IMG/VR virus record: IMGVR_UViG_3300037115_000048
Span: 1 to 24,257 of that record
Strand: one strand, 5' to 3'
From: a virus
Length of the DNA stretch: 24,257 bases
Below are positions 3 to 10,517 of this stretch, one piece after another. Position 1 is the stretch's first letter. Every line of letters starts with the position of its first letter. The position numbers and the translations under genes were made by a program. The notes below the pieces were generated by a model. That model saw only the letters and a program-made list of their open reading frames with translations. It did not search any database and was not told the DNA's origin.

Positions 3-275
3 GCGAACCCGACCCTGATGCAGGCCATCAGCCAAGGGATCCCACAGAACGCGACCAATGGCATCGGCGTGGTCTCCGGCTACGGTGTCGGCGCCGGTAA
101 CGGCGGCGCGGCCCCGGCGCAGATCTCTGGCACCGGTGGACTCGGCAGCCCAACGGTCGACGCCTCAGGCTCAGGCTCCGCGACATCGTTCGGCGGCGCG
201 CTGGCGGTTGACTCCAAGCAGATGGTGTCCGCGACAACTCAGATCGCGACCCCGGTCGCATATGGTGGAAACTAA
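3..275 (+). CDS. 5'-truncated Ala/Gly-rich small phage protein (paralogue family, copy 1)
   Basis: The reading frame is open to the left edge of the window, so only the last 90 residues are visible; an ATG at 18 exists but the true start probably lies outside. The visible part opens with a short conserved-looking block (PTLMQAISQGIPQNA) that resembles blocks in the genes at 275 and 983. It then becomes low-complexity Gly/Ala/Ser sequence and ends in TQIATPVAYGGN, close to the tail of the gene at 1439 (TIATPPVYTGN). Its TAA overlaps the next ATG (TAATG), which suggests translational coupling. No catalytic motif is seen. A virion-associated (head or tail decoration) role is possible but is only inferred from composition and context. 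Confidence 0.7.
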   Translation, partial: ANPTLMQAISQGIPQNATNGIGVVSGYGVGAGNGGAAPAQISGTGGLGSPTVDASGSGSATSFGGALAVDSKQMVSATTQIATPVAYGGN

Positions 276-757
276 TGACTTTGTACGGCCCTAATGGTGG
301 TGTTGTAAACGGCCAGCCGATCAGCCCCTTCTTCGGCGCGCAGAATGGCGCCGCCACGCCCGGTAGCCCGATCATTCCGTTGCCGGCGCAGGTCAACGCT
401 CCGCAGGTAACACTGTTGGAATCGGCGGCCCGCGGCGCGGTACCGCGCAACGCTATCGTCGCCTCGATCAACGGCGTCAACGCCGGAGCGGGCGACAACA
501 TGTCGGTTGATGAAGCCATGGGCTCCGGTAACGGCGCGCAGGTTAATCTCGGGGCTCCGGTCAACAGCTCATCCGGCAATCCGGCGACTAATGGCGCGAT
601 CAGTAACCAAGAATTTGTCGGCGGTATCATCGGCGCGGTTGCCTCTTCGGCGAACGGCCCCGCCGCGACCAACACCGAGACGCTGACGTCCGCCCCGATT
701 TCTGGCGCGACGGTCGCGGTGAACGTCAGTCTCGTGGCCAACGGGTTTCAGGGTTAA
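275..757 (+). CDS. Ala/Gly/Asn-rich small phage protein (paralogue family, copy 2)
   Basis: This 160-residue protein starts at an ATG overlapping the previous stop, with GGTGGAA a few bases upstream as ribosome binding site. The N-terminus MTLYGPNGG resembles those of the genes at 983 and 1439. The middle block LLESAARGAVPRNAIV resembles the core block of copies 1 and 4. The rest is low-complexity Asn/Ala/Gly/Ser with several hydrophobic beta-like stretches. There is no signal peptide, membrane segment or cysteine. It is unrecognised as a named family. The repeated design suggests duplicated structural or decoration proteins, which is inference. Confidence 0.8.
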   Translation: MTLYGPNGGVVNGQPISPFFGAQNGAATPGSPIIPLPAQVNAPQVTLLESAARGAVPRNAIVASINGVNAGAGDNMSVDEAMGSGNGAQVNLGAPVNSSSGNPATNGAISNQEFVGGIIGAVASSANGPAATNTETLTSAPISGATVAVNVSLVANGFQG

Positions 758-758
758 C

Positions 759-986
759 GTGTCGGACGTCAGCGGCAAAGAGCCCATCGACAATGTGCGC
801 CTGCGGCACCGGCCGAACGCGCCACTGAAGCGCACGGCGAACATGCACAAGGCCGGCAAACCCACGCGCTACGCGGCACAGCCGTACTCGGAGCTGTACC
901 CGCCGCGGGCCATGCCAACTCCGCGCACAGCGAACGCGCACCGCGATGCGACGATCCCACCTCTTCGGACAAGACAACGACCATGA
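759..986 (+). CDS. Small Arg/Pro-rich basic hypothetical protein
   Basis: A 75-residue frame begins with GTG one base after the preceding stop, with CAGGG upstream as a modest ribosome binding site, and ends in TGA overlapping the ATG of the next gene (ATGA). The product is strongly basic, with many Arg, His and Pro residues and no evident fold. Its position inside the array of Ala/Gly-rich paralogues and its tight junctions on both sides favour a real gene. The composition alone would not. No function is recognised; nucleic-acid binding would be a guess. Confidence 0.6.
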   Translation: MSDVSGKEPIDNVRLRHRPNAPLKRTANMHKAGKPTRYAAQPYSELYPPRAMPTPRTANAHRDATIPPLRTRQRP

Positions 987-1435
987 CCTACTTCTTCAAC
1001 AGCTCGACCGCGGCCTCCCCGGGCCTGCAGGTTCCAACTCCCGGGCAGCCGCTGCCGGGCATCCCGCCGAATATGTCGGTCATGGCCGCGATCAGCGCCG
1101 GCCTGCTGCCGGCGAACGTGCTTCAGACCAGCATGGGCGTGGCGGACTCGCGCCCAGGGCGCACCGTGCTGGAGGCGCAGGGGATGGGTCAGGCGAAGGG
1201 CGCAGGCCAGTCTGCTGTGAACCCGTACATGTTCCCGAACGGCGGCGCGGCCGGCGGCGCGGGCCCCGGAGCCGGCGGCGTGAATCAGACACAGGGCCCG
1301 ACTTCGGGCGAGACATCGCTTCTCGTAGCGGCGGCCCAGGGCACGCAGTCGGCGGTCAACGGCGGCCTGAACCCGGCCGCGGCGATCAACTCTCCGAATC
1401 TCACGATACCCGCGCAGCCTGTGTATCAAGGTTAA
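983..1435 (+). CDS. Ala/Gly/Pro-rich small phage protein (paralogue family, copy 3)
   Basis: This 150-residue protein has an N-terminus MTYFFNSST like the neighbouring MTIFYPNSS, a core block PNMSVMAAISAGLLPANVL like that of copy 1, then a Gly/Ala-rich spacer and the tail LTIPAQPVYQG. The start ATG overlaps the upstream TGA. No enzyme motif, cysteine or membrane segment is visible. Short ordered blocks joined by flexible Gly/Ala linkers suggest a fibrous or decoration component. It could equally be a non-structural accessory protein; the family is not recognised. Confidence 0.8.
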   Translation: MTYFFNSSTAASPGLQVPTPGQPLPGIPPNMSVMAAISAGLLPANVLQTSMGVADSRPGRTVLEAQGMGQAKGAGQSAVNPYMFPNGGAAGGAGPGAGGVNQTQGPTSGETSLLVAAAQGTQSAVNGGLNPAAAINSPNLTIPAQPVYQG

Positions 1436-1438
1436 CAC

Positions 1439-1876
1439 ATGACCATTTTTTATCCTAACTCCAGCATTCAGAACACGGCCGGCGACAACCCGGTCGCCCC
1501 CGGCAACGCGCCGGTGCCGAACGCGGCCGGGATCATGAACGGCAACCCGGCCGGCTCGCAGTACCAGCCGCAGGGCGTGCAGCCGCCGTTGCCGATGAAC
1601 ACGCCGAGCGCGCCACTGACGACTCAGATCGCGAACGGCCAGATCCCGCTGCAGACGCAGCCGACGAACGCGAACGTTGCACCCGGTCTCGACTCATTGC
1701 TCGCGCAGATGTCGCGCGGTCAGGTTATCCTTTGCGACTCGACCTATGGTCAGGGTTCGCTGGTGCAAAATTTTCCCGGTGGCGGCGGCAACACTGCGGC
1801 GACGATCGTACCAATCCCAACCGGGCCCGCGAGCGGCGTCACGATCGCAACCCCGCCAGTCTACACAGGCAACTAA
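1439..1876 (+). CDS. Asn/Pro/Gln-rich small phage protein (paralogue family, copy 4)
   Basis: This 145-residue protein begins MTIFYPNSS with an AAGG ribosome binding site nine bases upstream. The first half is disordered-looking Pro/Asn/Gln sequence. A block LDSLLAQMSRGQVIL occupies the position of the core block of the other copies, though it matches more weakly. The tail TIATPPVYTGN is nearly the same as in copy 1 and close to PVYQG in copy 3. It contains a single Cys. Function is unknown. The shared ends are the best evidence for common descent. Confidence 0.8.
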   Translation: MTIFYPNSSIQNTAGDNPVAPGNAPVPNAAGIMNGNPAGSQYQPQGVQPPLPMNTPSAPLTTQIANGQIPLQTQPTNANVAPGLDSLLAQMSRGQVILCDSTYGQGSLVQNFPGGGGNTAATIVPIPTGPASGVTIATPPVYTGN

Positions 1877-1878
1877 CC

Positions 1879-2151
1879 ATGAAAGTTTTCCTCGCGCTGA
1901 TTATCGCTCTTGGTCTCGGCTCCTGCGCACAGAACACCGAGCATATGTACGCAGGCATCGTGATCGAGTACCAGAACGGGAAAGCGGTCGACGCGCACCT
2001 GCTCGGTGTCGCATTCTCGAAAGCAAAATGTGAGGCCGGCGTGAAGAGCGCCGCGGCGGTCGCGAACAGCGAGCCATCCGATGGATCACATTATGTGGTC
2101 GGGTGTGCGGAGTTTGTGCCGTTAATCTCCGCAGATGGCGTGTCGAAATGA
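1879..2151 (+). CDS. Small predicted lipoprotein
   Basis: The 90-residue product has a short hydrophobic signal sequence (residues 1-15) and a lipobox L-G-S-C with the acceptor Cys at residue 16, so it is probably lipidated and membrane-anchored. The ATG at 1879 is preferred over in-frame upstream starts because it puts the signal peptide at the N-terminus and sits two bases after the previous stop. The mature part is about 75 residues with two further cysteines that could form a disulfide. Phage lipoproteins may act in superinfection exclusion or be cargo expressed late. Neither role is shown here. Confidence 0.75.
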   Translation: MKVFLALIIALGLGSCAQNTEHMYAGIVIEYQNGKAVDAHLLGVAFSKAKCEAGVKSAAAVANSEPSDGSHYVVGCAEFVPLISADGVSK

Positions 2152-2345: not shown

Positions 2346-3554
2346 GTGGCAACCCTAACAATCGTCCAGACGTACTCCACACCCGGGGCGTACGTCTGGA
2401 CCCCGCCGGGGCTACCTGAGGGCGCGGTCCTAGTATCAGCGACTGTCACCCCTGTAGTGATCGGCGGCGGCGGCGGCGGCGCAAGTGGCCCCGCGGCTAC
2501 TAACAGTGCCGCGAGCGCGGCTGCCGGCGGCGGGGGCGGGGGCGCCGGTTATGCGACCGCGACCTATCAGCTCGTAAATCTTCCCGCGTCTGTGGCGATT
2601 GTTGTCGGTGTCGGTGGTCTGGGGGGTGTGGCGGTTGTAGCGTTGCCGCCAGCAACCTCCTCCCCTGGAAACAATGGCGCTACTGGGACGTCCTCTTCTT
2701 TTGGTGGCACCCTACTTGTCGGCCCCGCGGGCGGCTCGGGATTCGCAAACACTATCGGCGGCGCGGGCGGCACCGGCTCAAATGATGGCACCCGGTCCCC
2801 GACTGGAGTCGTTGTACAAACCGGCGGCGCAGGCGGTATGGCCGGCGTTGCACCAACAGCCGGCGCAGCGGCCACGCTCGCGGGCGACGGCGGCGGCGGC
2901 GGGGCAGCTGCCCAAGGCACGTCGCCATTCTCATTCGCTGGAGCGAATTCCGGCAGCGGCGCGATTGGGGGTGCCCCGGCGATCAACGGTAACGGCACGA
3001 GCGGTGCGGCCGGCTACGCGGGCGCCGGCGGCGGCTCGACCTATACGCCTTACAATACGAGTACCGCCAACTGGTCGGCGGGTTCCGGCGGGGCCGCGAC
3101 TTTCCCAGGCGGTGGTGGCGGCGGCGGCGCAATGGCTGCCAACGACGAGCTACACAGCGCGACCTCGGGCGCAGGCGGTCTCGGCGCGAACGGGATGGTG
3201 GTTGTTACGACGGTCTACGTCGTGTTGTTTCCCGCTACCGTCGCTGGAGGACAGCAGCTGACTCCGAACCCAAATGTTACTGCGGTAGCTGGCATGGGCG
3301 GCGACAAGTGGGGCGCGAACGGTGGCGGCATCAACCCGATCGGCGGGGGTGTCACCGGCGTGCAAGGTTGGGACGAGCGCCTGAAGGTGACAACTTCCGA
3401 CGGTCAGCGCACGACGACCTACGAAGTGAACCCAATCCCGGTGATTGCTAAAGGTGCTCCGACGCAGTCCGTGTTATCTCAAGTTTCCAACAGCGCGCTC
3501 TCGGAACTGAGTTTTGATGATACGCTCCCAGGTGGAGGAAGCCATGCAGGATAA
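2346..3554 (+). CDS. Glycine-rich phage protein, probable tail/virion component
   Basis: This 402-residue protein begins with GTG immediately after an in-frame TGA, so no longer start exists. Residues about 7-20 read QTYSTPGAYVWTPPG, the aromatic TPG-x-Y-x-WTPP signature that opens many phage glycine-rich domain proteins. It is followed by repeated GGGGGG runs, the pattern of proteins folding as polyglycine-rich sheets in tail tips or fibres. The last 100 residues are less repetitive and more polar, perhaps an attachment or trimerisation domain. There is no clear ribosome binding site, and a 12-bp inverted repeat sits just inside the gene. Membership of the glycine-rich tail-associated group is inferred from motif and composition. 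Confidence 0.8.
   Translation: MATLTIVQTYSTPGAYVWTPPGLPEGAVLVSATVTPVVIGGGGGGASGPAATNSAASAAAGGGGGGAGYATATYQLVNLPASVAIVVGVGGLGGVAVVALPPATSSPGNNGATGTSSSFGGTLLVGPAGGSGFANTIGGAGGTGSNDGTRSPTGVVVQTGGAGGMAGVAPTAGAAATLAGDGGGGGAAAQGTSPFSFAGANSGSGAIGGAPAINGNGTSGAAGYAGAGGGSTYTPYNTSTANWSAGSGGAATFPGGGGGGGAMAANDELHSATSGAGGLGANGMVVVTTVYVVLFPATVAGGQQLTPNPNVTAVAGMGGDKWGANGGGINPIGGGVTGVQGWDERLKVTTSDGQRTTTYEVNPIPVIAKGAPTQSVLSQVSNSALSELSFDDTLPGGGSHAG
2364..2401 (+). promoter_or_regulatory. Perfect 12-bp inverted repeat at the start of the glycine-rich gene
   Basis: GTCCAGACGTAC (2364-2375) is the exact reverse complement of GTACGTCTGGAC (2390-2401), with a 14-base spacer. On the mRNA it would form a 12-bp stem starting 18 bases after the GTG start codon. 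No U-tract follows, so it is not a standard terminator. It could hinder or tune translation, or act as a DNA site. It lies in codons of a conserved protein motif, so part of the symmetry may be coincidental. Confidence 0.6.
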
Positions 3555-7349: not shown

Positions 7350-7649
7350 GTGGGTATAGCATTCCACCAGCTTTTGCTGGATGACATGATTGCTGTCGCG
7401 CTGCTGGGTGACTCCGCTGCGATGGGGCGCATCAAGTTGCCGGATTGGCAGCGGTATCTGCGCGGCACCGTGATCGCTGTCGGACCCGGTAAGATGCTCC
7501 CGTATGGCGACCGCGCACCGATGGAGTGCAAGGTTGGCGACACGGTGACGTTCTCACCGACAGCCGGCATGGCGAGCGACTACGGGGTTGGCAAACAAGT
7601 GCGTTTGATGAGAGATCCGGATGTAGATTCTGTGGAGGAAGCCTCATGA
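7350..7649 (+). CDS. GroES-like co-chaperonin (copy 1)
   Basis: The 99-residue product aligns by eye over its whole length with bacterial GroES (about 97 residues). LLDDMIAVALL corresponds to the first strand, GRIKLPD (26-32) sits at the mobile loop that contacts GroEL, and RGTVIAVGPGKMLPYGD (38-54) matches the signature strand and roof hairpin. PMECKVGDTVTFSP is equivalent to the PLDVKVGDIVIF stretch. Co-chaperonins cap GroEL and assist folding; phages such as T4 (gp31) encode their own to fold the capsid protein. It starts with GTG behind AAGGTGAG and its TGA overlaps the next ATG. No GroEL is in the window, so it would work with a host or distant chaperonin. Confidence 0.85.
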   Translation: MGIAFHQLLLDDMIAVALLGDSAAMGRIKLPDWQRYLRGTVIAVGPGKMLPYGDRAPMECKVGDTVTFSPTAGMASDYGVGKQVRLMRDPDVDSVEEAS

Positions 7650-8191
7650 TACTCACGCCGGAACTCCAAGATGTTGCGGCACGCACGCACGTGCTGCGTG
7701 ACCGAGTCTTAGTGAAGATTCTTCCGTATGTGCACCCAATCTTGGCGACGCCCGGAGTTGAGGTGAGCAAAGGGGTTGTGATCGCAGTCGGCTACGGCAG
7801 ACGGCAGCGCCGTAAGGTAGAATTTAAACAGAGCATCAGCGGCGGGGCGCCAGTGATTGGCCCGGACGGAAAGACCGTCATGAAATTTGCGCCCTCACGC
7901 CTGAACGACCGTGCACTGTTTTTTGATGACGGCGATGAGACGGGGCGCATAATTCCGATGCAAGTGAAGCCGGGCGATGTAATCGAGTTTGGATTCAGAA
8001 ACGTGACGTTGGTGGATTTTGACCGTGTCGGGTTCCCTGGAATCGGCCATCTCGCTTTCATCTGGCAAGCCGCAGTTTATAGCATCGATCCAGACGAGTC
8101 TTTTGAAAATTGTCTTCTTTGGCAAGAGAGCGCAGGCCACGACCGTCAAGGGAACTTTATGAGCGGACAGGAGAGTTGGGCCCGTGCTTAA
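7646..8191 (+). CDS. Divergent GroES-like protein with inserted segment (copy 2)
   Basis: The 181-residue product starts at an ATG overlapping the stop of the first GroES-like gene (ATGA). HVLRDRVLVKILPYV (15-29) and KGVVIAVGYGRR (42-53) match the first strands of GroES. IPMQVKPGDVIEFG (103-116) matches the PLDVKVGDIVIF strand. Between these lies an extra stretch of roughly 45 residues placed at the roof hairpin, and the segment where the mobile loop would be (30-41) is short. A C-terminal tail of about 60 residues is also beyond normal GroES length. The fold call is fairly good; whether it binds a chaperonin is open. It could form mixed rings with copy 1. Confidence 0.7.
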   Translation: MILTPELQDVAARTHVLRDRVLVKILPYVHPILATPGVEVSKGVVIAVGYGRRQRRKVEFKQSISGGAPVIGPDGKTVMKFAPSRLNDRALFFDDGDETGRIIPMQVKPGDVIEFGFRNVTLVDFDRVGFPGIGHLAFIWQAAVYSIDPDESFENCLLWQESAGHDRQGNFMSGQESWARA

Positions 8192-8202
8192 GCAATCTTG
8201 GC

Positions 8203-9099
8203 GTGAGTAACCGTAAACCAAAGACCGGAAAGGCGGACTTCGCGCGTCAAGTCTGCGACGCCATCAAAGACGGCTCGCCTGATATGTACAACGGCGCCGC
8301 CAGACGCGTTGTGCCGATCGAGGAAGCCGAGAGACAGGGATGGCCGCACTACTACGACGGCAAGACCGCGTGCCCCCAGGGGCATGTCGCCGCCCGGTAC
8401 GTCTCAAATCCTGCCGTCTGCGTGGATTGCCGGCGCATCGGCGACGGTAAAACTGCGATTTACTCGAAAACCGAATTTCTGGACGCCCTGACAGGCCATC
8501 CCGTGTACGTGGACCCGGTCGCAAGCGACAGATTCGAGTGGACAGACGAAAAAAAGCGCCAACTGTTGACCGCGTGGATCAATACCACCGATATTTTAGC
8601 CGCCGCGAAGACAATTGGCGCGCAACCGTCGCATGTGATCGATCTTTTGGCGTCGGATGTCGAATTTAAGGCCGCTTACGAAGACGCGCAGCGAAAAGTC
8701 GAGCAAGTGCAGCTCTGGTCGGTCGAATCAAGGGCCGGCGGCGGTAGTGATCGCCTTCAGTTGGCGATGGCGCAGAGTAAATTCACTCAATTCGGAGCCA
8801 AAACAGGTTTGGCGGACCGGCCAACAGTAAACACGGAGCAGGCGCGTGCAGAACTTACCCAACTCCTATCAGTTGCTAAGCGAGCGCTTGCTCAGCGAGC
8901 ACGACTTGAGTCAGTTGCAAGAACTAGTCGAAGTGTGGGACGTACTGACATCCCCGCAGCAGATTCAGCAGGCACTGACGTGGAAAAACCGGCTCTATTG
9001 GGACAACCACACGACAATAGCGACTTGGTTTCCGACGCCGGCAGTGAGAGCGGCGTATCCGAAGCAGATGCTGCACTTCCAACTCGGCGCAAAGTATGA
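8203..9099 (+). CDS. Terminase small subunit-like protein with N-terminal zinc motif
   Basis: The GTG at 8203 gives 298 residues; a TTG at 8110 would add 31 and overlap the GroES-like gene. No good ribosome binding site marks either start. Residues 57-76 carry C-x3-H-x11-C-x2-C (C57, H61, C73, C76) within YDGKTACPQGHVAARYVS, a knuckle common in phage DNA-associated proteins. Residues about 113-160 (WTDEKKRQLLTAWINTTDIL then GAQPSHVIDLLASDVEFKAAY) look like the helix-turn-helix region of small terminases, which recognise phage DNA for packaging. Its position immediately before the large subunit fits. The last 84 codons overlap the large-subunit gene in another frame and look low-complexity. 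Confidence 0.7.
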   Translation: MSNRKPKTGKADFARQVCDAIKDGSPDMYNGAARRVVPIEEAERQGWPHYYDGKTACPQGHVAARYVSNPAVCVDCRRIGDGKTAIYSKTEFLDALTGHPVYVDPVASDRFEWTDEKKRQLLTAWINTTDILAAAKTIGAQPSHVIDLLASDVEFKAAYEDAQRKVEQVQLWSVESRAGGGSDRLQLAMAQSKFTQFGAKTGLADRPTVNTEQARAELTQLLSVAKRALAQRARLESVARTSRSVGRTDIPAADSAGTDVEKPALLGQPHDNSDLVSDAGSESGVSEADAALPTRRKV

Positions 9100-9733
9100 C
9101 GAGCGCGGCCTGTTCGGGGGGAATCGCAGCGGCAAGACACATTGCGGCACATTCGAGGACACGCTCCATTTGACCGGCCTCTATCCGGACTGGTGGGAGG
9201 GCCGGCGCTTCGATCGCGCGATTGGCGCCTGGGTGGCGACCGATACCGCAAAAAACGTCCGCGACATCCTACAGGAGAAGTTCTGCGGGGAGCCGGGCGT
9301 GCCACAGCTGTTTGGTACCGGCATGATTCCGATCGATTACTTTGCCAGCGAGCCCACGTCGAAGCACGGGATCGCGAACGCATTCGAGGCGGCATACGTC
9401 CACCATTTTACGAACGGGATCTATGACGGCGTCTCGACACTGATGTTCAAGTCCTACGATCAAGGACGTCAGGCGTTCCAGGGCACCCAACAGGATCTCA
9501 TCCACCCGGACGAAGAACCGAAGATCGAGATCTACACCGAGATGTCGTTACGGCTTATGAGCACGTCCCCCGGTGAGCAGAACGGGGCCTTAGTTTTGAC
9601 CGAGACCCCGCTCTTAGGGATCAGTGAATTAATGATCGCGTTCATGCCAGAGCTGAACCCGCTGCCGGATGCGCGCCCTGTTCGCGAGTACGACCACGAT
9701 CAACCGGACTACGACATGGTGGTCAGTGAGTGA
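8846..9733 (+). CDS. terL: Terminase large subunit, N-terminal ATPase part (split gene)
   Basis: The 295-residue product is the motor half of a large terminase, which pumps DNA into the prohead. WFPTPAVRAAYPKQMLHFQL is the typical lead-in. GGNRSGKT (91-98) is the Walker A motif, PDEEP around D222-E224 is the Walker B acidic site, and LTETP (251-255) is the coupling motif. The GTG start at 8846 has GGAG six bases upstream and lies inside the small-subunit gene; a GTG at 8933 is an alternative. The frame ends at a TGA created within a GTGA tandem duplication, and the nuclease domain continues in the next frame. Without it this half could hydrolyse ATP but not cut DNA. Confidence 0.85.
   Translation: MQNLPNSYQLLSERLLSEHDLSQLQELVEVWDVLTSPQQIQQALTWKNRLYWDNHTTIATWFPTPAVRAAYPKQMLHFQLGAKYDERGLFGGNRSGKTHCGTFEDTLHLTGLYPDWWEGRRFDRAIGAWVATDTAKNVRDILQEKFCGEPGVPQLFGTGMIPIDYFASEPTSKHGIANAFEAAYVHHFTNGIYDGVSTLMFKSYDQGRQAFQGTQQDLIHPDEEPKIEIYTEMSLRLMSTSPGEQNGALVLTETPLLGISELMIAFMPELNPLPDARPVREYDHDQPDYDMVVSE
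9726..9733 (+). repeat. GTGAGTGA tandem duplication that splits terL
   Basis: The bases read GTC-AGT-GAG-TGA in the ATPase frame. Removing one GTGA copy joins the frames as DMVVSEINESRVATFLDMDD, a continuous terminase sequence. The duplication therefore both makes the stop codon and supplies a GTG start for the downstream frame. It may be a real 4-bp insertion or a sequencing or assembly error. Confidence 0.75.
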
Positions 9734-10517
9734 GATTAACGAGAGTCGCGTCGCAACCTTTTTAGATATGGATGATGTGCCTCATCTAACAGCCGCGGAA
9801 AAAGCCAAAATTTTAAAAGGCGTTGCACCCTTCGAGTTGCAGGCGCGCAAGTCCGGTATCCCTGGTCACGGCGTCGGCGCGATCTATCCGATCGCCGAGA
9901 GCGTCATGACGATGCCGGCATTCGATATTCCGAAGCACTGGCCGCGCAGCTACGGGATGGACCCGGGCTGGAACTGCACCGCGGTGATATGGTTCGCGTG
10001 GGACACAGACCACGGATACGTGGACCGGGACGGCGCGAGGCGCTATCCGGCGTACGGGTACGATGAGTACTACATGGGTCAAGAGCACCCGGCCATCCAT
10101 GTCGCCGGGATCAACCGACGCGGCCCATGGATCCCCGGCGTCATCGACCCCGCTGCCGAGAAGGCGCGCGGCCTCGATGGCGAACTGCTGCTTGAGACCT
10201 ACCGCGGGCTGGGACTGAACGTCCACAAGGCCGACAACTCGGTTGTGTCGGGCCTGATTCAGACCTGGGATATGCTTTCGACTCAGAAGCTGCGCGTCTT
10301 CGACACGCTGCTGAACTGGCGCAAAGAGATCCGCCTATACAAGCGCGACGAGAAGGGCGTCATCATCAAGCGCAACGACCACTTGATGGACGCGATGCGC
10401 TATAACGTTATGAGCGGTTTCGCCGTGGCGCGGCCGCCGCCGGCCAGCGAGGGCGGTCTGCCATGGTTTACCTGGAGTCCTGAATTAGCTTCTCCTGGTG
10501 GGGTATGGAGCGGGTAG
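9726..10517 (+). CDS. terL: Terminase large subunit, C-terminal nuclease part (split gene)
   Basis: From the GTG at 9726 the product is 263 residues. MDDVPHL (15-21), the IPGHGVGAIYP stretch and SYGMDPGWN with D79 are typical of the region leading into the RNase H-like nuclease of large terminases. VIDPAAE (D141) and NDHLMDAMRY (D218, D222) supply the further metal-binding aspartates. The nuclease cuts concatemeric DNA at the start and end of packaging. The start is uncertain: GTG 9726 overlaps the upstream TGA by eight bases, which allows reinitiation, and ATG 9768 is another choice. The open frame extends back to 9669. All key acidic residues are kept, so the half is not visibly decayed. 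Confidence 0.85.
   Translation: MSEINESRVATFLDMDDVPHLTAAEKAKILKGVAPFELQARKSGIPGHGVGAIYPIAESVMTMPAFDIPKHWPRSYGMDPGWNCTAVIWFAWDTDHGYVDRDGARRYPAYGYDEYYMGQEHPAIHVAGINRRGPWIPGVIDPAAEKARGLDGELLLETYRGLGLNVHKADNSVVSGLIQTWDMLSTQKLRVFDTLLNWRKEIRLYKRDEKGVIIKRNDHLMDAMRYNVMSGFAVARPPPASEGGLPWFTWSPELASPGGVWSG

What the first reader, a model, noticed from the sequence alone, without database searches (positions are those of the whole stretch)
3..1876. Array of small Ala/Gly/Asn-rich paralogues with shared ends and a shared core block
Seen: copies at 275, 983 and 1439 begin MTLYGPNGG, MTYFFNSST and MTIFYPNSS. A core block (QAISQGIPQNA, ESAARGAVPRNA, AAISAGLLPANV) recurs in three copies. Ends such as TPVAYGGN, PAQPVYQG and TPPVYTGN recur. 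Separate spacers of variable low-complexity sequence join these. This looks like duplication with fast change in the linkers, as in decoration or adhesion proteins. The family is not known to me and may continue left of the window.
Basis: partly seen in the sequence, partly recalled or inferred. Interest (0 to 1): 0.6.

Follow-up and report, generated by a model that had tools for sequence, protein, structure and literature searches.

The report
Five-gene two-box protein cassette in podophages
A row of small, nearly uncharged phage proteins that share a short paired motif and a common tail end forms a conserved, apparently undescribed gene cassette in uncultured P22-like phages; it sits beside interchangeable sugar-binding-type genes, so it is most likely part of the virus particle's outer surface.

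Summary
The window is a 24-kb fragment of an uncultured P22-like podovirus. The four ORFs (A 3-275, B 275-757, C 983-1435, D 1439-1876) belong to a cassette, A-B-C-D-E, found in the same order in 30 other IMG/VR contigs (some cut short), ahead of the terminase genes. A 14-residue 'SRG box' profile (about [ST]-[LVI]-[LM]-x-A-x-S-R-G-x-[IV]-[SP]-x-N), trained without the family tested, beats 99% of shuffles in A 22/23, B 21/24, C 24/26, D 27/27. Profile alignments pair a second box. A, B, C and most D end in [YF]xG(x) (89/98; 1-2% by chance). E holds at best a degenerate box. Linkers vary by indels, but dN/dS is about 0.2: the duplications are old and there is no sign of positive selection. E, or the gene after it, carries swappable Laminin-G, PASTA, propeller-like or pectate-lyase-type domains. 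A-D match nothing in Pfam, PHROGs or PDB, and A-E nothing in 50,697 phage records. Best reading (inferred): small virion-surface proteins whose boxes are docking elements, with E anchoring a variable adhesin. Nothing here shows virion location.

The parts
3..275 (+). Gene A, 3' part (5' end lies off the contig); full homologues about 150-180 aa with two boxes
   Evidence: phmmer match to A family, E 1.6e-29; alignment A5
9..50 (+). A, second box PTLMQAISQGIPQN
   Evidence: PSSM 25.5 bits with A in the training set, 5.0 without; invariant NPTL..SQG in 23 members
275..757 (+). Gene B, 160 aa; its start overlaps the stop of A (TAATG)
   Evidence: Relatives at 39-51% identity over nearly full length; alignment A6
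407..448 (+). B, first box VTLLESAARGAVPR
   Evidence: PSSM 11.6 bits without B in the training set, above 99% of shuffles
503..535 (+). B, second box SVDEAMGSGNG
   Evidence: Family's second box pairs with that of A and C in profile alignments
983..1435 (+). Gene C, 150 aa (divergent member)
   Evidence: phmmer E 1.6e-6 to C family; alignment A3
1073..1114 (+). C, first box MSVMAAISAGLLPA
   Evidence: PSSM 21.1 bits without C in the training set
1160..1201 (+). C, second box RTVLEAQGMGQAKG
   Evidence: Family's second box aligned with those of A and B
1439..1876 (+). Gene D, 145 aa, the widest-spread member
   Evidence: phmmer E 4.7e-19; found even in the distant contig L098
1616..1660 (+). 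D, first (degenerate) box LTTQIANGQIPLQTQ
   Evidence: D-E two-box alignment; alignment A9
1691..1732 (+). D, second box DSLLAQMSRGQVIL
   Evidence: PSSM 20.7 bits without D in the training set
2346..3554 (+). Gene E: about 290-aa Gly-rich (minor-tail-protein-like) N-terminal domain fused to the conserved E module
   Evidence: phmmer E 1.1e-19 to E; phrog_356 minor tail protein E 2.3e-6; Gly_rich_2 below cut-off
3225..3554 (+). E module GGQQLTPNPNV..GGDKWGANGGG plus a possible degenerate box QSVLSQVSNSALSE (3465-3506)
   Evidence: Alignment A8; box 4.5 bits, within the shuffled range on its own

Best explanation
The cassette encodes small structural proteins of the phage particle's surface. 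Shown: five adjacent genes (A-E), overlapping or nearly so; A-D are low-charge, Gly/Ala/Asn/Ser/Thr/Gln/Pro-rich, carry two copies of a short box and mostly share the tail [YF]xG(x); E is fused to, or followed by, swappable carbohydrate-binding or lyase-type domains. Inferred: the boxes are the small folded docking elements that bind one repeated site on the particle (coat lattice or neck) or each other, the C-terminal strand joins subunits, and flexible linkers hold the parts off the surface. E is the anchor that carries the variable adhesin, in the manner of a capsid-binding domain with an adhesion head (as I recall for T4 Hoc and T5 pb10). Five paralogues would let one docking rule place five different subunits.
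For: Box homology beyond shuffles. C-terminal motif in 89/98. Fixed order in 30 other contigs. The cassette heads the plus-strand structural block in the 61,042-bp relative G003. Variable neighbours: Laminin_G_3 (L013, L060, L003), PASTA (L013, L060, L010, L055; L003 just below cut-off), pectate-lyase-like (L041); a Big_2-like ORF (E 0.002, below cut-off) and a propeller-like E fusion in L098. Window E resembles a minor tail protein. Charged residues only 3-5% in window A-D against 14-24% in coat and portal. B missing in L030/L031 and A-C not found in L098, as for accessory parts. Known decoration proteins with Ig-like or collagen-like parts act in adhesion (PMC7602432).
Against: No proteomics or structure. 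AlphaFold2 is poor (A pLDDT 42; B 52, with residues about 41-82 near 70) and no fold match was found. The position, before the terminase, is away from the tail genes. Adhesin-type domains are fused only to E, not to A-D, so for A-D the link is by neighbourhood. Cultured relatives, VvAW1 included, give no tblastn match to A-E, so the particle can be built without them in related phages.
Confidence: 0.5

Rival explanations
1. Assembly or head-completion factors: A-D are internal or transient proteins used in coat folding, scaffolding or packaging, together with the two Cpn10-like proteins and terminase downstream.
For: They lie a few kilobases ahead of two Cpn10-like genes, terminase and portal in one gene block; mostly disordered sequence would suit assembly factors.
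Against: A separate scaffold gene is present (phrog_8865); box proteins neighbour adhesin-type genes; B is dispensable in two contigs.
Confidence: 0.2
2. Parts of the short tail or its tip (adaptors, fibre joints) that connect a second receptor-binding spike to the virion.
For: ORFs after E share the N-terminus TPANSGQGDSPKSAFDKINANF, which I recall from tail fibres/spikes (memory); LamG part matches phage tail and virion proteins.
Against: The other tail genes, with likely fibre and spike genes, lie at the far end of the structural region in G003; five different adaptors would be unusual.
Confidence: 0.17
3. Host-directed proteins made late: proteins that modify the host envelope or exclude other phages.
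For: A lipoprotein-like ORF sits between D and E in the window, L034 and L044; a trypsin-like ORF precedes A in L005 and L007.
Against: A-D show no signal peptide or transmembrane segment by eye; composition fits surface fibres better.
Confidence: 0.1
4. Chance similarity in low-complexity sequence.
For: Composition is strongly biased.
Against: Shuffle controls, leave-one-family-out test, synteny and dN/dS about 0.2.
Confidence: 0.02

Closest known systems
Hoc (T4) / pb10 (T5) / gp17 (N4) type decoration proteins
   Same: Accessory particle proteins in which, as the review describes, adhesion domains are displayed; compared by analogy to E
   Different: No sequence likeness found; here a cassette of five genes with 14-residue boxes, mostly without a confidently predicted fold
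SPP1 gp12 collagen-like head spike
   Same: Small low-complexity surface protein
   Different: No collagen Gly-X-Y repeat in A-D; boxes instead
P22-like podoviruses (VvAW1, Shewanella phage X14, P22)
   Same: Portal (PF16510, E 5e-143), coat (PF11651), scaffold and Hc3-like head-closure genes
   Different: Nearest portal only about 33% identical; no match to A-E; relatives with the cassette reach 59-61 kb; terminase large subunit in two genes
Dockerin modules (analogy only, from memory)
   Same: Two tandem copies of a short helical segment as a docking unit
   Different: No calcium-loop residues; no claim of homology

Membership tests
Phage head decoration proteins | Present on the outside of mature capsids | not testable with these tools
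   No proteomics or particle structure
Phage head decoration proteins | Encoded among structural genes | tested here: met
   Heads the plus-strand structural block in G003, with terminase, portal, scaffold and coat downstream
Phage head decoration proteins | Sequence or fold match to a known class (beta-tulip, OB-fold Dec, Soc, Ig-like) | tested here: inconclusive
   No convincing Pfam, PHROG or PDB match for A-D; models too poor for a fold comparison
Adhesins / receptor-binding proteins (E) | Carbohydrate-binding or lyase-type domain | tested here: met
   Met for E fusions or the gene after E in several relatives; in the window's E only a weak Gly-rich/minor-tail match
Adhesins / receptor-binding proteins (A-D) | Carbohydrate-binding or lyase-type domain | tested here: not met
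   No domain match in A-D
Collagen-like phage proteins | Gly-X-Y repeat | tested here: not met
   None in the A-D sequences by inspection
P22-like podovirus | P22-type portal and coat | tested here: met
   PF16510 and PF11651 above cut-off

The most novel reading that the evidence does not exclude
The two-box module is a new, minimal phage docking device: diverged paralogues use one short repeated helix-turn motif and a common C-terminal strand to assemble a mixed fringe on the particle, and the E member plugs in exchangeable adhesins. A 68-aa protein in L098 (2915-3121) that is little more than two boxes would be its simplest form.
Probability: 0.22. Interest if true: 0.72.

Novelty: new variant of a known kind. 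Interest (0 to 1): 0.5.

Why it matters
It defines a conserved, so far nameless protein family in a clade of phages without close cultured members, gives a short motif by which members can be recognised, and points to a site where these phages exchange adhesin-type genes. If the docking reading is right, the box would be a compact way of attaching proteins to phage particles.

Tried and rejected
Pfam and PHROGs with A-D: nothing convincing; phrog_13961 for B (E 0.087) was hit by only one of 22 members, and two weak PHROG hits to A (E 0.006, 0.009) by one of 23 each. tblastn of A-E against 50,697 phage records: no match at E<=1. Genome collection: no hit with B; with the portal one contig, L077, in a 'Solirubrobacterales bog' MAG, carrying E and the following genes. 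That is too weak to name a host, since viral contigs are easily mis-binned. AlphaFold2 on A and B: low confidence, no fold match. A DsbA_N hit to A (E 0.019, below cut-off) and PDB hits (E 0.15, 0.49) were dismissed as chance. Joining of the window's two ends was rejected: in G003 ejection genes and cassette are far apart. Four literature searches gave general reviews at most.

Full report
What the window is. The 24,257-base window is an IMG/VR virus record, without tRNA genes. It encodes a P22-type portal (PF16510, E 5e-143), a P22-type coat (PF11651, E 5e-25), a scaffold, an Hc3-like head-closure protein, a terminase and, at the right end, the start of a DNA-ejection protein. The closest portals among 50,697 phage records are only about 33% identical, so the phage belongs to a clade without close cultured members.

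The observation. ORFs at 3-275 (A, cut by the contig end), 275-757 (B), 983-1435 (C) and 1439-1876 (D) are as reported. B alone finds 12 relatives at 39-51% identity over nearly the whole length. Further scans with A, C, D and E bring the count to 30 distinct contigs besides the window, and the last scans add none. The order is A-B-C-D-E-[variable]-F, one copy of each, wherever the genes are present. Exceptions are losses: B in L030/L031; A undetected and B only 54 aa in L063; extra DNA between B and C in L043 and L044; the distant contig L098 has D, E and a 68-aa two-box protein but no recognisable A-C. Several contigs are cut within the cassette.

Is the likeness real? Three tests agree. First, hhalign between families against column-shuffled profiles, which keep composition and column conservation: A-B, A-C, B-C and A-D exceed all 100 shuffles, C-D 99 of 100; with larger families all pairs but B-D (1/60) and B-E (2/60) exceed all 60. 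hhalign's own probability is high only for A-C and B-C (94%), 45% for A-B, and low for pairs with D and E, where only 13-37 columns align. So A-B-C are paralogues over a good stretch, D shares the box region, and E is borderline. Second, a 14-residue box profile trained without the tested family beats the 99th percentile of shuffled proteins in nearly all members of A-D, but in only 7 of 26 E. In the relative G003, B, D and C score 38, 34 and 26, the next protein 11.7 (these families were in the training set and the greedy ORF choice left A out there). Third, all A, B and C proteins and 18 of 27 D end in [YF]xG(x), against 1-2% of shuffles.

Anatomy. The box reads about [ST]-[LVI]-[LM]-x-A-x-S-R-G-x-[IV]-[SP]-x-N. 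Profile alignments pair two boxes: A ESIMAAVSRGEISLNQ and NPTLMQAISQGVPQN; B MSVLEACSRGIIPRNA and SLDEAMSSGNGAQ; C DTVLASASRAALPLNA and RTVAEALSIGDRNG; D LTTQLSNGNI and DSLLAQMSRGQVIL; E has degenerate versions at best. Box spacing in A is 32 residues in 12 of 22 members. The AlphaFold2 model of B puts a short helix on the first box, a strand after it, a helix on the second box and a strand at the C-terminus, with residues about 41-82 at pLDDT near 70 and most of the rest low; A is unreliable throughout. Family means for charged residues are 4-7%. In the window the stop of A overlaps the start of B; in relatives such as L007 the B and C frames overlap by four bases, which suggests coupled translation.

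Evolution. Median dN/dS is 0.19-0.26 for the four families, from pairs above 70% identity, so they are real genes kept by purifying selection. Linkers differ by insertions and deletions. Each ORF is recognised by one family profile only at E<1e-3. The duplications therefore predate the spread of this clade.

Surroundings. E is the best clue to function. In the window it is fused to a Gly-rich domain resembling a minor tail protein. In L060 and L010 E (found by profile) is fused to Laminin_G_3 plus PASTA and to PASTA; L013, L003 and L055 have the same layout, with the E module (GGDxWGAxGG) seen by eye only. In L044 and L098 E is fused to a propeller-like domain. In L041 the next gene is pectate-lyase-like (PF12708), and the genes after E in L005, L063, L064, L028 and L065 share its N-terminus. 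In G003 (61,042 bp; its first 30 bases recur 97 bases from the end, so probably a complete circular genome) the cassette heads the plus-strand structural block, while ejection genes and likely tail fibres and spikes are at its far end.

Interpretation. I take the cassette as accessory surface proteins of the virion. The step from homology and neighbourhood to surface location is inference, and so is the docking role of the boxes. Known head decoration proteins give precedents for adhesion domains displayed on the capsid and for parts that are disordered until bound (PMC7602432). Membership among decoration proteins is not claimed: the defining feature, presence on the capsid, could not be tested.

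Limits. Host and habitat are not established. The relatives come from assembled metagenomes. The number of relatives depends on the scan patterns used. One genome-collection scan hit the clade (L077), in a MAG that may be mis-binned.

Noticed in passing
window 8846-9733 and about 9726-10517: The terminase large subunit lies in two overlapping genes (ATPase half and nuclease half) in the window, G003 and L077, while VvAW1 has one ORF.
   Followed up: partly
window 7350-7649 and about 7640-8113: Two tandem Cpn10/GroES-like genes (first PF00166 E 5e-9; second E 0.0013, below cut-off) upstream of the terminase, with counterparts in relatives.
   Followed up: partly
window 1879-2151: Small ORF with a lipoprotein-like start (MKVFLALIIALGLGSCAQ) between D and E; similar-looking ORFs at the same place in L034 and L044. 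Possibly receptor-blocking or exclusion; untested.
   Followed up: no
L005 4545-5180, L007 4445-5086: Trypsin-like protease ORF with a likely signal peptide just upstream of gene A (PF00089 E 1e-10 for the L007 copy).
   Followed up: no
window 759-986: 75-aa basic ORF between B and C, without a clear counterpart in most relatives; L044 has a different 70-aa basic ORF there.
   Followed up: no
L098 2915-3121: 68-aa protein with two boxes and little else (KNVLAKLSTGELAAN, STLLSSMSKG), seen by eye.
   Followed up: partly
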